Source of the DNA: Flagellimonas aurea
GTDB lineage: Bacteria > Bacteroidota > Bacteroidia > Flavobacteriales > Flavobacteriaceae
DNA length: 64,000 bases
Direction of reading: 5' to 3'
Assembly (NCBI RefSeq): GCF_017313785.1
Contig: NZ_JAFLNL010000004.1
Coordinates: 248,001-312,000, forward strand
Shown: piece by piece, positions 7,626 to 17,946 of the stretch
How positions within the stretch are numbered: position 1 is the first letter of the stretch
How the letters are laid out: each line of letters opens with the position of its first letter
Position numbers and translations under genes: made by a program
The notes under the pieces: model-generated
The model's input: only the letters and a program-made list of their open reading frames with translations
Told to the model about the DNA's origin: nothing
Databases searched by the model: none

Positions 7626-8024
7626 ATGGGTCTAAATTCATATTCTTTTCGGGTTCGGTATGCAGAAACCGACCAAATGGGGGTTGTTTACCACGGTAAT
7701 TATGCGCAGTATTTTGAAATGGGTCGAGTGGAGTGGTTAAGGGCCATGGGAATCACTTACAAAAGCATGGAGGATAACGGGGTGATATTGCCCGTAATTT
7801 CTTTACACATTGACTACAAAAAGTCTGCGGTTTATGATGATTTGTTGACCGTGCGTACCCAATTGAAATCAAAGCCCATGGTCAAGATTGAGTTCGACTA
7901 TGACCTTTTGAACGAAGCAGGGGAGTTATTGGCCACCGCGAACACCGTTTTGGCCTTTATGGACAAAAAAACGGGACGCCCCATAAAATGTCCTGATTAT
8001 ATCTTGGAAAAATTGGAAGATTGA
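7626..8024 (+). CDS. Acyl-CoA thioesterase, YbgC/4HBT family
   Basis: 132 aa hotdog-fold thioesterase. The YbgC signature is clear: RYAETDQMGVVYHGNYAQYFEMGR with the catalytic Asp in ETDQMG. It hydrolyses acyl-CoA thioesters; in proteobacteria YbgC goes with Tol-Pal, but no tol genes are here. It is divergent from dnaA across 182 bp and is followed directly by tandem repeats. Confidence 0.9.
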   Translation: MGLNSYSFRVRYAETDQMGVVYHGNYAQYFEMGRVEWLRAMGITYKSMEDNGVILPVISLHIDYKKSAVYDDLLTVRTQLKSKPMVKIEFDYDLLNEAGELLATANTVLAFMDKKTGRPIKCPDYILEKLED

Positions 8025-8029
8025 TTTTT

Positions 8030-8107
<78 letters not shown>

Positions 8108-8117
8108 TTTGTTCTTA

Positions 8118-8209
8118 TGTCTAGCAGCGCAGCGTTCTTTTGTCCAATATCGTAGCGGTCCTGAGTCTAACAGCGCAGCGTTCTTTTATCCAACAGCAAA
8201 GCGGTCTTG
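8118..8209 (+). repeat. Four tandem copies of a degenerate 23-bp repeat
   Basis: Units at 8118, 8141, 8164 and 8187 are exactly 23 bp each. Copies 1 and 3 share CAGCGCAGCGTTCTTT; copies 2 and 4 share the TCCAA and AGCGGTC segments, so the array may have grown by duplicating a 46-bp pair. The last unit ends 6 bp before the stop of the minus-strand yigZ gene. Confidence 0.85.
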
Positions 8210-13017: not shown

Positions 13018-15311
<2,294 letters not shown>

Positions 15312-15337
15312 TCAATTTACAATCAACAATGGACAAA

Positions 15338-15362
15338 TGTCAGTTCGAGCGCAGTCGAGAAC
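15338..15362 (+). repeat. Dispersed element arm, copy 1 (TGTCAGTTCGAGCGCAGTC)
   Basis: 25-bp unit repeated almost identically at 15609-15633 and again, as the left arm of a hairpin, at 48783. It belongs to the GTCAnTTCGA family. Confidence 0.8.
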
Positions 15363-15608
15363 CCTTTTGCCCTTTACCATTTGCCCTTAAGTAATCACCT
15401 AGAAGCTTCACCACCCTTCGGCTACGCTCAGGGTCCGGTTTAGAATGACAATATTCAGTATGCAGTATGCAGTATTCAGTAAGCAGTTAACAATTAGCAA
15501 TTGCCAGTAGTGTAGGAATCAGATATAAGATTCAAGATCCAAGACATAAGACATAAAAGTGAAAGTCAATGGGCAGTGGGCAGTTTACGATTAACATTAG
15601 ACGTCGCT

Positions 15609-15633
15609 TGTCAGTTCGAGCGCAGTCAAGAAC
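15609..15633 (+). repeat. Dispersed element arm, copy 2
   Basis: One mismatch from the copy at 15338, in direct orientation 271 bp downstream. Recombination between the two would delete most of the heptamer tract. Confidence 0.8.
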
Positions 15634-15672
15634 TTTTTAACCATTAACCATTAACCATTAACCAATAACCAA

Positions 15673-16584
15673 CTAAACCGTAATGCTCACTCCGTTGGCC
15701 GATGCCTTTTTAGCGCTATCAAAATAGAAGTCTATCCTACCTAGATTGATCCCGTAGCATCCCACTTGGTTCACAAGAACCGAATTGCCGTTTTGGTTGG
15801 TGCGCACATCGGGCTTGTCCAAAAAAGTATGTGTATGCCCACCAATGATCAAATCGGTGTGGAAAGTTTTTTGTGCCAATTGGGTATCGCAGGGTTTTTC
15901 CGGGTAATCGTAATCATAACCCAAATGCGATAAGCAAACAATCAAATCGCACTGTTCTTCCTCTTTGAGTTGCTTTTCTATGTCCAGGGCAATCTCGTAG
16001 GGGTCCAAATACTGGGTTTCCTTATAGAGTTTTTTGGTCACCAATCCGTCCAGTTCAATGCCAAGGCCATAGACCCCGATTTTAATGCCATCCACCGTAT
16101 ATATTTTATATGGTTTTACATAGCCGTCCATCACCGTGTTGGTAAAATCATAGTTGGCGTTGATCATTTCAAAAGTGGCATTGGGCATTTGAGCGAGAAG
16201 GCCGTCAATACCGTTGTCAAAATCGTGGTTGCCTATGGTTGCCGCATCATATTTGAGCTTGCTCATCAACTTAAATTCCAGTTCGCCACCATAAAAATTA
16301 AAGTAGGGGGTTCCTTGGAAAATATCACCGGCATCAAAAAGTAGGGTGTTCGGGTTTTCATTACGGATTTGCCCTACCAAAGTGGCTCGCCTTGCCACCC
16401 CGCCCAAATTAGGGTGTCTGGAGTGGGTAGGGGGGAAGGTGTCGATATGGCTGTGCACATCGTTGGTGTGCAATATGGTAATCTGTTTTTTGCCCAAATT
16501 GGAACATGAGCTTAAACTGAGCCCGCCCAATCCAATTAAAGTGGATGCAGCGGTGGTATTGGTGATAAAGTCCCTTCGTTTCAT
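15673..16584 (-). CDS. 5'-nucleotidase/UshA-type metallophosphatase domain protein
   Basis: 303 aa. N terminus MKRRDFITNTTAAS has a twin-arginine-like start and a lipobox SLSSC (Cys27). Metallophosphatase motifs in order: HTNDVHSH (Asp42, His44), LFDAGDIFQG, TIGNHDFD, LSHLG, GGHTHTF. It should hydrolyse extracytoplasmic nucleotides or related phosphoesters. It lacks the substrate-binding C-terminal domain, which is a separate gene immediately upstream, overlapping as ATGA. Confidence 0.92.
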   Translation of the reverse strand: MKRRDFITNTTAASTLIGLGGLSLSSCSNLGKKQITILHTNDVHSHIDTFPPTHSRHPNLGGVARRATLVGQIRNENPNTLLFDAGDIFQGTPYFNFYGGELEFKLMSKLKYDAATIGNHDFDNGIDGLLAQMPNATFEMINANYDFTNTVMDGYVKPYKIYTVDGIKIGVYGLGIELDGLVTKKLYKETQYLDPYEIALDIEKQLKEEEQCDLIVCLSHLGYDYDYPEKPCDTQLAQKTFHTDLIIGGHTHTFLDKPDVRTNQNGNSVLVNQVGCYGINLGRIDFYFDSAKKASANGVSITV

Positions 16585-17351
16585 TGATCCATTTGTTTTA
16601 TACGGTCGTCTGCAACCGCCTGTAAAGTGTCCACTTTTTTAAAGTAATCTATAAGAGCATTGCGCAATAGGTAATCCGTTGCCGTTCTGGAAACAATTTG
16701 ATCAAAAAAGCCAACGCTTGGCCCTCCGTTAATCAAATAATCGGAAGATGCAACGTAGTAATTTCGGTTTTCATCAAAAGGTCGACCTTGAATGTTCACA
16801 GATTCCAGAGCGCCGTTTTTGTCCGTAACAATCTCGATTCCGGCAACAGGATGTCTCCGTGAGGACTTAGCCACAAAATTGATGAGTTCCCGGGTAGCGG
16901 AGCCGTTGAGCTCTACCACTTCAATGTAATTTTCAAAAGGCATTACTTCGTAGGCGTTTCTGGCACTTACATTGCCCTCGGAAATAATGGAGCGTACACC
17001 ACCGGCGTTCAATACCACAAAATCCAAGGTGTTGCCGGACCTGGAATTGAAGATGGGGGAGGCCTGCTCAAAAACAATGTCCGCCATTAAGTTTCCCATG
17101 GATGAGGTACGTTCGCCATCGTTCAGCAATAGCGGTTTTGGAGCGTATGCCAAGGTGCTGTCCAATACTTCGTTGATTCTTTTTCGGTACGGTTCCACAA
17201 ACGTTTCAATGGAATCGGTCTGCGTTAAAGTAGAGTCGATTGGGAGTTGTTTGCCCTGAATTTCCGTTAGGTTTACAGTATCATTTTTACAGGACATTAA
17301 AAAACAAAAAGTTGTAAATACAACAAATTGTTTAAATTTTAGATTGTTCAC
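16581..17351 (-). CDS. 5'-nucleotidase C-terminal domain lipoprotein
   Basis: 256 aa from the GTG at 17351. The start gives VNNLKFKQFVVFTTFCFLMSC, a lipoprotein signal; the ATG 54 codons further up would put an unrelated extension before it and run into the divergent gene. The body is the 5_nucleotid_C domain, with DGERTSSMGNLMAD, VVLNAGGVRS and YYVASSDYLINGG, which binds the nucleoside base. It probably works with the metallophosphatase encoded downstream, to which it is coupled by a 4-nt overlap. Confidence 0.9.
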   Translation of the reverse strand: MNNLKFKQFVVFTTFCFLMSCKNDTVNLTEIQGKQLPIDSTLTQTDSIETFVEPYRKRINEVLDSTLAYAPKPLLLNDGERTSSMGNLMADIVFEQASPIFNSRSGNTLDFVVLNAGGVRSIISEGNVSARNAYEVMPFENYIEVVELNGSATRELINFVAKSSRRHPVAGIEIVTDKNGALESVNIQGRPFDENRNYYVASSDYLINGGPSVGFFDQIVSRTATDYLLRNALIDYFKKVDTLQAVADDRIKQMDQ

Positions 17352-17360
17352 GTGCGTATC

Positions 17361-17395
17361 TTTGTTAAGTCGTCTTGGTAGATTATTTACCTTTG
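17361..17395 (+). promoter_or_regulatory. Promoter of the DUF6913-dapA unit
   Basis: TTTG at 17361-17364 and TACCTTTG at 17388-17395, spaced 23 bp, fit the Bacteroidota -33/-7 pattern. Transcription would begin near 17401, 12 nt before ATG 17413. A second TAnnTTTG (TATCTTTG) is at 17357-17364. Confidence 0.5.
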
Positions 17396-17412
17396 TAAAA
17401 ATCATCAAAAAT

Positions 17413-17946
17413 ATGTTTTTGAAAGGACTCCAGGACAAATTTAAGGTTAAATCGGGGCAGAAATATTTAAGGGAGGAATTGGAAAGGTCTCCCAAGACTG
17501 TTGCCAGGGACAAGGGGATTACCAGCGTGGGCTGTATTGTCGATGTTGATAATTTTCAGAAAGCAGAGGCCTTTTACGAACTTATTGAGGAGTTTTCGCT
17601 GAGACCGAATGCCATAAAAATCATTGGATATAAGCGAGAGTTCGATAAAAATTCCCCTTACGCCATCCAAATGTTCTCGGATAAGGACCTTGGATGGAAA
17701 GGACAGATAGAAAACAGTTACGTTCTGGAATTTTTGAGCAGGGAGTACGATATGTTGATCAATTATTATGAAGATGATAATTTAATGATGAAGTTGTTAT
17801 CGGTAAAAACCCTTGCCCGTCTCAAAGTTGGCTTGGCCGCCCAAGACCCCAATATCAACGATTTGATCTTAAATACACCCTTGAGCGACTTTAAGTTGTT
17901 CAAAAGTGAACTGAAAAAATATTTAAAGGTCTTAAAAGAAATTTGA
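17413..17946 (+). CDS. DUF6913 family protein
   Basis: 177 aa. Starts [19 protein letters not shown]; a longer frame exists upstream, but it overlaps the divergent lipoprotein start and precedes the promoter. The protein resembles a family found widely in Bacteroidota next to dapA, with no known function. No signal peptide or membrane helix; sequence such as [19 protein letters not shown] looks like a globular alpha/beta fold. dapA follows 4 nt after its stop. Confidence 0.75.

What the first reader, a model, noticed from the sequence alone, without database searches (positions are those of the whole stretch)
15313..15672. Non-coding tract in which period 7 is kept while the repeat unit changes
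Directly visible: CAAnnnn x4, TTTGCCC/TTTACCA/TTTGCCC, TnCAGTA x4-5, CAAGA/CATAAGA-type units, GGGCAGT x2 and TTAACCA x5 follow one another, all with 7-bp spacing. From 15454 to about 15600 the phase stays constant over some 21 heptamers although the sequence drifts, with A dominating position 4. Simple slippage makes copies of one unit; a fixed period with changing sequence suggests selection on spacing or an enzyme that adds or copies seven-base steps. Heptameric short tandem repeats are known in cyanobacteria, but I know of no explanation for mixed units.
Basis: partly seen in the sequence, partly recalled or inferred. Interest (0 to 1): 0.75.

Follow-up and report, generated by a model that had tools for sequence, protein, structure and literature searches.

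The report
Drifting seven-base repeats between bacterial genes
A stretch of DNA between two genes of a bacterium is built of seven-base steps whose letters change along the way, most likely because seven-base stutters in DNA copying are repeated and then mutate; why the step is almost always seven is still unexplained.

Summary
Mostly confirmed. In 15312-15672, a gap between convergent genes of a Flagellimonas/Allomuricauda relative, lag-7 identity is 0.51 against 0.26 in shuffles. Five heptamer blocks and two REP-like repeats fill it. One detail fails: the halves of the '21 heptamers in constant phase' fit better one base out of register. Copy number differs in sevens between close species (5 versus 110, 11 versus 14 copies), one old mixed tract is 97% conserved, other indels are not excluded, and simulated bursts of 7-bp duplication with mutation reproduce the fading phase. 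Selection on spacing is not needed; no reverse transcriptase was found in the genome with the 110-copy array. Heptanucleotide repeats are a known kind in bacteria. New here are the drift in phase, different units at one orthologous site, and a near-exclusive, unexplained step of seven.

The parts
15313..15336 (.). heptamer block 1, CAAnnnn type (3.4 units)
   Evidence: lag-7 score 9
15338..15399 (.). 62-nt module: REP-like TGTCAGTTCGAGCGCAGTCGAGAAC followed by a TTTGCCC-type heptamer block
   Evidence: direct repeat of 15609-15670, 79%; REP-like part at 20 places within 2 mismatches in the genome, the two here included
15363..15388 (.). heptamer block 2, CCTTTTG CCCTTTA CCATTTG CCCTT
15449..15502 (.). 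heptamer block 3, drifting CAGTATG to CAATTAG
   Evidence: similar to the tract downstream of the same gene in L055 (by eye)
15518..15584 (.). heptamer block 4, drifting TCAAGAT / ATAAGAC to CAGTGGG
15609..15670 (.). second 62-nt module: REP-like repeat followed by TTAACCA block
15637..15672 (.). heptamer block 5, TTAACCA x4 + ATAACCA, reaching the end of the phosphoesterase gene
8031..8107 (+). perfect array AGGAGTC x11, six bases (TTTTTT) after the stop codon of the thioesterase-like gene 7626-8024; the orthologous site holds other 7-bp units in relatives
   Evidence: Pfam 4HBT_2 for the gene
15018..15311 (+). upstream gene (97 aa, no Pfam family at E 0.001), follows the ligA-like gene 13021-15021 (name from recall)
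15673..16584 (-). convergent gene, calcineurin-like phosphoesterase (5'-nucleotidase type, name from recall)

Best explanation
The tract is neutral spacer DNA that has been through repeated rounds of 7-bp tandem duplication. A short match (about four of seven bases) at a distance of seven lets the copying machinery slip by 7n bases, and one unit or a few units are added as copies, sometimes many at once. Point mutations then blur the copies, and later a mutated unit is expanded again. Because additions are multiples of seven, the phase survives within a tract while the unit drifts, and tracts of different age and unit come to lie side by side. Shown here: the period, its near-exclusivity in the sampled stretches, the fading phase, copy-number differences in sevens between relatives, and different units at one orthologous site. 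Inferred: that strand slippage rather than another copying reaction makes the steps, and that a four-base match is enough. Unknown: why the step is seven.
For: Period: in 158 partly overlapping loci of Flavobacteriaceae (3.13 Mb) perfect intergenic arrays of 3 or more units number 59 at period 7, against 2 at 5, 1 at 6, 1 at 8 and 0 at 9-15; inside called ORFs 11 at period 7 and 4 at period 6. The 59 fall into 18 independent sites. Eight stretches of four species pairs (1.81 Mb): 18 perfect intergenic arrays at period 7, 2 at period 5; degenerate tracts 59 at lag 7, 16 at lag 8, at most 3 at lags that are not multiples of 7 or 8. Phase outward from perfect arrays: 0.557, 0.466, 0.446, 0.412, 0.371, 0.336 and on to background by about 8 units; other registers average 0.25-0.28. 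A burst-duplication-plus-mutation simulation matched this to rms 0.023 at the best of 60 parameter sets (29 simulated arrays). Relatives: CCCTCAA 5 copies here against 110 in A. abyssi (91.7% identical over 271 kb); AGGAGTC 11 against 14. In 93-95% identical pairs three 7n indels lie in tracts: 14 bp and 7 bp that are perfect copies of the neighbour, and 14 bp with 4 mismatches. One orthologous site carries AGGAGTC, GAGGCTA, AAGAGAC, AGAAGTC, AGTAGAC or GGAGACA in different species, 2-unit seeds in others, none in others. A gap with an old mixed tract is 97% identical between two species although neighbouring units differ.
Against: Ordinary slippage gives no reason for 7 over 6, 8 or 9. The same units recur at separate sites: AGRAGTC arrays of 4 or more units in 11 of 40 genomes of the genus, the reversed unit in 0 of 40, which points to a sequence preference or to dispersal. 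A first, continuous slippage simulation did not fit: its in-phase identity stayed mostly at 0.75-0.95. One of the three 7n indels between close species is an imperfect copy. In a looser set of 14 species pairs 15 of 58 indels of 4-60 bp were multiples of 7, 26% against 14% expected, many of them not copies of a neighbour. No strain-level data (over 95% identity) were available, so rates were not measured.
Confidence: 0.68

Rival explanations
1. A dedicated enzyme adds or copies seven-base steps, for instance a telomerase-like reverse transcriptase or a polymerase with a seven-base reset.
For: Period 7 is almost exclusive. Arrays can differ by about 100 perfect copies between close species. DRT10 shows that bacteria have reverse transcriptases that make tandem repeats (PMC12632851, abstract and passages seen).
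Against: Units differ between sites and species, so no single fixed template can serve. RVT_1 (PF00078) was found in 2 of 8 genomes searched and not in G065, which has the 110-copy array. The DRT10 passages describe 9-nt repeats for one system, with other motif lengths in others, in protein-primed cDNA. Period-8 tracts exist too.
Confidence: 0.12
2. Selection keeps a seven-base spacing because a protein or RNA reads the tract.
For: Phase is kept within blocks; the CAGT-type blocks look as if CA were fixed; a constrained core is seen in the Arenibacter octamer tracts.
Against: In 52 heptamer tracts mismatches are spread over the seven positions nearly as in neutral simulation (dispersion 1.28 against 1.13, P 0.051). 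Substitution rate is like other spacer and 4 of 7 indels break the period. At the same place four relatives have a gap of only 7-23 bp without heptamers (L003, L005, L006, L015). RNA folding is no better than shuffles (z 0.18). Tracts show no strong preference for one kind of gap: 2.6% of convergent, 2.5% of tandem, 1.6% of divergent spacer.
Confidence: 0.07
3. The tracts are dispersed elements (REP-like repeat plus heptamer block) copied from place to place, each copy then drifting.
For: Two 62-nt modules in the tract. REP-like repeats lie within 100 bp of a lag-7 tract in 10 of 29 cases against 10.2% of random positions (some loci overlap, so not all 29 are independent). Shared units across sites.
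Against: The heptamer parts of the two modules differ in unit. 19 of the 29 REP-like repeats have no tract near, and by eye the arrays at the 8031 site have none at their boundary. Dispersal would not by itself fix the period.
Confidence: 0.13

Closest known systems
Heptanucleotide long simple sequence repeats in prokaryotes (Mrazek et al. 2007, known here only through passages of PMC4679880 and PMC4692102; the paper itself is not held)
   Same: Seven is said to be the commonest unit among 5-11 bp repeats in most genomes; polymerase slippage with a seven-base contact was proposed
   Different: Those are tandem iterations of a unit; here the phase is followed through decayed, changing units and compared between species, and period 7 is near-exclusive
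TAACTGA heptamer repeats of Beggiatoaceae, Cyanobacteria and some Bacteroidetes (PMC4679880, passages seen)
   Same: Intergenic heptamers; in Gramella, Aequorivita and Elizabethkingia the regions hold other heptamer repeats and 'larger assemblages', and for some of them the same gene neighbourhood in a relative has a shorter gap without obvious repeats
   Different: No perfect TAACTGA pair in the window or in the 217 loci. In Beggiatoaceae the repeats are of one unit near start codons; here units are many, and several arrays start just after stop codons or terminator T-runs
Degenerate heptanucleotide repeats in the tRNA-Leu(UAA) intron of Nostoc (PMC3488679, one passage seen)
   Same: Degenerate 7-base repeats whose copy number varies
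   Different: They lie in an intron and pair into a hairpin; the focal tract folds no better than shuffles
GGGAATC / GGGGA(C/T)T repeats of Xanthomonas and Nostoc (PMC4692102, passages seen)
   Same: Perfect or heterogeneous heptamers, intergenic, length and sequence variation between close relatives
   Different: G-quadruplex type unit; no such unit among the 29 classes of perfect arrays
Elements of four or five tandem heptanucleotides in Geobacter metallireducens (PMC2700814, passages seen)
   Same: Tandem heptanucleotides at many places of one genome
   Different: Fixed copy number and consensus, taken there for regulatory elements; here copy number and unit vary

Membership tests
Heptanucleotide simple sequence repeats (bacterial) | tandem 7-bp units beyond chance | tested here: met
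   TTAACCA x4, AGGAGTC x11; lag-7 z 10.8
Heptanucleotide simple sequence repeats (bacterial) | identical units along the array | tested here: not met
   blocks 3 and 4 (15449-15584) change unit; only block 5 and the 8031 array are perfect or nearly so
Heptanucleotide simple sequence repeats (bacterial) | copy number varies between close relatives in steps of 7 | tested here: met
   for other arrays of the genus and near it; for the focal tract itself no aligned close relative was obtained
TAACTGA repeats | tandem TAACTGA | tested here: not met
   the one match in the window has 2 mismatches (15476-15489), 0.5 expected by chance
Telomerase-like / DRT10 repeat synthesis | reverse transcriptase present with the arrays | tested here: not met
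   no RVT_1 match in G065, which has the 110-copy array; one weak match in the window's own genome; draft genomes, one family only
Telomerase-like / DRT10 repeat synthesis | one RNA-templated unit per genome | tested here: not met
   29 unit classes among 59 arrays over all genomes; several units within the window's own genome and within G065
Known structured RNA (Rfam) | match above gathering score | tested here: not met
   0 matches in 14000-17600; folding z 0.18
Cyanobacterial STRR repeats | their specific units (recalled: CCCCAGT and the like) | not tested
   units recalled, no search made

The most novel reading that the evidence does not exclude
In this clade an activity with a built-in step of seven bases, much less often eight, starts at short matches and lengthens intergenic DNA by up to tens of perfect copies, at some sites just behind T-runs or transcription terminators. 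Repeated cycles of burst and decay turn spacers into layered heptamer mosaics that record past bursts, and one site can be refilled with a new unit in each species.
Probability: 0.18. Interest if true: 0.8.

Novelty: new variant of a known kind. Interest (0 to 1): 0.5.

Why it matters
Heptamer excess in bacteria has been on record since 2007, as far as the passages read tell, with only a proposal for its cause. A clade in which 7 is nearly the only period, in which an array has 5 copies in one species and 110 in a close one, and in which old units keep their phase while drifting, makes the question 'why seven' testable by mutation accumulation and gene removal. It also warns that mixed repeats with a fixed spacing do not by themselves prove selection.

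Tried and rejected
Selection on a core motif: the CA-R-T look of several tracts suggested a fixed core, but over 52 heptamer tracts the positional dispersion is only marginally above neutral simulation.

Polar growth: arrays seemed freshest at the 5' end of the G-rich strand, but over 59 arrays the two sides do not differ (0.462 against 0.439; of 39 with both flanks 20 against 19), and after collapsing to 18 sites the relation to gene strand is not significant (10 of 18 against 43.8%).

T-runs: 6 of 18 sites have at least 5 T in the 7 bases before the array, against 5.9% of random positions (P 0.0004). Against this, TTTTTT directly before two AGRAGTC units was found only in this genome (2 places) and in none of the other 39 genus genomes, although 11 of 40 have longer AGRAGTC arrays, and two arrays at the thioesterase site (L017, L041) have no long T-run. 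I count it as a hint; the odds of the novel case were lowered from 0.20 to 0.18 for this on checking. The collapsing to 18 sites was mechanical and may over-merge.

Continuous slippage simulation: did not fit; replaced by the burst model, whose parameters were chosen as the best of 60, so the fit shows sufficiency only.

Higher substitution rate in tracts: a first count gave 0.184 against 0.076, but came largely from misaligned, non-homologous stretches (seen). With alignments under 80% identity dropped (39 of 404 intergenic alignments) and locally poor columns removed, it is 0.061 against 0.052.

Phylum sample: 40 stretches from Bacteroidota outside the genus. After dropping a T-run (L178) and a run of N (L201), lag-7 tracts number 0 in 8 loci of the same family, 3 in 7 of the order, 0 in 8 of the class and 6 in 17 others, 9 in all, against 3 at lag 8. 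E. coli, one 50-kb stretch (3.6 kb of spacer): no lag-7 excess. A CCCTCAA repeat had no match in the plasmid collection.

The 'own' sample was partly chosen by similarity to the tract (10 of its 21 pieces), so one search should be preferred. The stretches were chosen by kinship and position, but the spacer of L001, which lies in G065, had already been seen to be rich, and as species pairs they count many tracts twice. The counts include overlapping loci, identical arrays counted once. The 110-copy array is missing from the intergenic counts, I think because an open frame runs through it.

Full report
What is there. The finding lies in a 361-bp gap between two convergent genes, a 97-aa gene without a Pfam match (15018-15311) and a calcineurin-like phosphoesterase gene (15673-16584, minus strand). 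The window is part of a 4.48-Mb genome. Of the 59 loci that encode a relative of the 97-aa protein, the closest is Allomuricauda abyssi at 93%, so this is Bacteroidota and not a cyanobacterium. Lag-7 identity over the gap is 0.511 against 0.261 in 1000 dinucleotide shuffles (z 10.8); lags 14 and 21 are also raised but less, and lags 6 and 8 are 0.307 and 0.266. Five blocks can be cut out. Two REP-like stretches are each followed by a heptamer block, so that 15338-15399 and 15609-15670 form a 79% direct repeat. The REP-like stretch has 20 places in the genome within two mismatches, these two included. The claim of one phase over 21 heptamers is not right in detail: the columns are significantly uneven over 15454-15600 (0 of 2000 shuffles), but the two halves agree better when shifted by one base.

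Is it more than this locus. Yes. In spacer DNA of the loci from 59 relatives, lag 7 is the highest of lags 2-30, followed by 21 and 14, while coding DNA shows the 3-base rhythm and no lag-7 peak. Scored as degenerate tracts, L001-L032 have 48 at lag 7 and at most 2 at lags that are not multiples of 7; L033-L059 have 23 at lag 7, 5 at lag 8, 3 at lag 6 and at most 2 at other such lags. In eight contig stretches of four species pairs (1.81 Mb) 59 tracts have lag 7, 16 have lag 8, and no lag that is not a multiple of 7 or 8 has more than 3. Perfect arrays of three or more units: 59 intergenic ones at period 7, against 2 at period 5, 1 at 6, 1 at 8 and 0 at 9-15. The 59 reduce to 18 independent sites. 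Density varies strongly: 0 to 0.4% of spacer in four genomes, 4.1 to 4.8% in three, 1.3% in this one. In 40 stretches of Bacteroidota outside the genus tracts are rare, 9 at lag 7 against 3 at lag 8 after dropping a T-run and a run of N.

How the phase behaves. Going outward from the 59 perfect arrays, identity to the last unit in phase falls from 0.557 through 0.466, 0.446, 0.412, 0.371 and 0.336 to background after about eight units, while the other registers average 0.25 to 0.28. In the 140 bp beyond the arrays lag 7 stands at 0.484, and 14 and 21 at 0.409 and 0.387; the next highest lag of 2-21 is 0.305. So perfect arrays sit inside haloes of blurred heptamers. The longest continuous case is 302 bp in L041, about 43 units that change from ATGGTTG through TGTCTCC to CCTTAAC.

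What close relatives show. At orthologous places the copy number differs in sevens: CCCTCAA 5 copies here and 110 in A. abyssi, which is 91.7% identical over 271 kb; AGGAGTC 11 here and 14 there. At another site with both flanks aligned, three AGGAGTC-type units here stand against six AGAAGTC there. A. abyssi also has AGTAAGC x15 beside a gene whose counterpart here has no array, but only one flank aligns there. After the thioesterase-like gene ending at window 8024 (Pfam 4HBT_2) arrays begin within a few bases of the stop codon, mostly behind a T-run, and the unit is AGGAGTC, GAGGCTA, AAGAGAC, AGAAGTC, AGTAGAC or GGAGACA according to species; some species have only two, partly imperfect, units and others none. 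Of 59 loci, 49 had the gene. In three species pairs of 93-95% identity, the 7n indels in tracts are a perfect 14-bp copy, a perfect 7-bp copy and a 14-bp one with 4 mismatches; other tract indels there were 1, 2, 9, 19 and 32 bp, some in poorly aligned stretches. An old mixed tract lies in a gap that is 97% identical. At the focal gap, 39 of 59 loci had the phosphoesterase gene within 4 kb. The gap is 7-23 bp and free of heptamers in L003, L005, L006 and L015, and is filled with other heptamer mosaics in L008, L014, L020, L021, L022 and L024; in other loci it holds other genes or longer DNA.

Mechanism. A burst model (a unit with at least four of seven matches to its neighbour is copied a few times, then 8% of bases change, then another burst) gives 0.57, 0.47, 0.46, 0.38, 0.38, 0.33, close to the data; it was the best of 60 settings and shows sufficiency only. 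A continuous model did not fit. In tracts of four close pairs substitutions run at 0.061 per site (30 of 490) against 0.052 in other spacer, and of 7 indels 3 are multiples of seven, against 5 of 179 elsewhere. Thus tracts differ by sevens but are not protected from other indels. Positional unevenness of mismatches in 52 heptamer tracts is 1.28 against 1.13 in simulation (P 0.051). I therefore prefer repeated 7-bp slippage with decay and re-expansion over selection on spacing.

What stays open. Slippage does not explain why the step is seven. The seven-base polymerase contact proposed by Mrazek and colleagues (read through PMC4679880 and PMC4692102) would be expected to act widely, whereas density here varies between close genera and species. 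A reverse transcriptase is not needed: RVT_1 was found in 2 of 8 genomes and not in the one with the 110-copy array. Hints of something more specific: T-runs just before 6 of 18 independent sites (5.9% expected, P 0.0004), weakened by the finding that TTTTTT before AGRAGTC pairs occurs in 1 of 40 genus genomes, this one; and recurrence of AGRAGTC arrays in 11 of 40 genomes against 0 of 40 for the reversed unit. REP-like repeats are near tracts more often than chance (10 of 29 against 10.2%).

Literature. Eight searches of the held library were made (listings seen). Passages of seven papers were seen: PMC4679880, PMC4692102, PMC4060949, PMC12632851, PMC12699852, PMC3488679 and PMC2700814, of PMC12632851 also the abstract. 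Mrazek 2007 is known only as cited in the first two. They report heptanucleotide excess, TAACTGA repeats with 'larger assemblages of heptamer repeats' in Bacteroidetes, GGGAATC repeats, tandem heptanucleotide elements in Geobacter, degenerate heptanucleotides in a Nostoc intron, and enrichment of some 6-9 bp repeats in prokaryotic phyla. In these listings and passages I saw no account of period-locked drift between units or of different units at one orthologous site. No paper was read in full, and supplements were not read.

Noticed in passing
L144:4534-4795, L145:8380-8997, L150, L151 (Arenibacter): Octamer tracts with a nearly fixed AAT(G/T) core every 8 bases and four variable bases, about 33 units in phase in the longest regular one. 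Mismatches by position 0,2,14,23,15,26,25,5; dispersion 8.0 against at most 3.3 in 111 simulated slippage tracts. Unlike the heptamers these look constrained and may deserve their own study.
   Followed up: partly
G065:C60:31083-31852 (L158): CCCTCAA repeated 110 times without an error in A. abyssi, 5 copies at the same place in this genome.
   Followed up: partly
window 15339-15362, 15610-15633 and 18 further places in the genome: REP-like repeat GTTCTCGACTGCGCTCGAACTGAC (up to 2 mismatches), enriched near heptamer tracts; its mobilising enzyme was not sought.
   Followed up: partly
window 8111-8208: 23-bp / 46-bp repeat (GTCTAACAGCGCAGCG type) right after the AGGAGTC array; similar sequence follows the site in relatives.
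   Followed up: no
L090:571-3137 (G000:C28:60571-63137): Two gaps of the same genome rich in drifting heptamers and REP-like repeats, with parts 71-95% similar to the focal tract.
   Followed up: no
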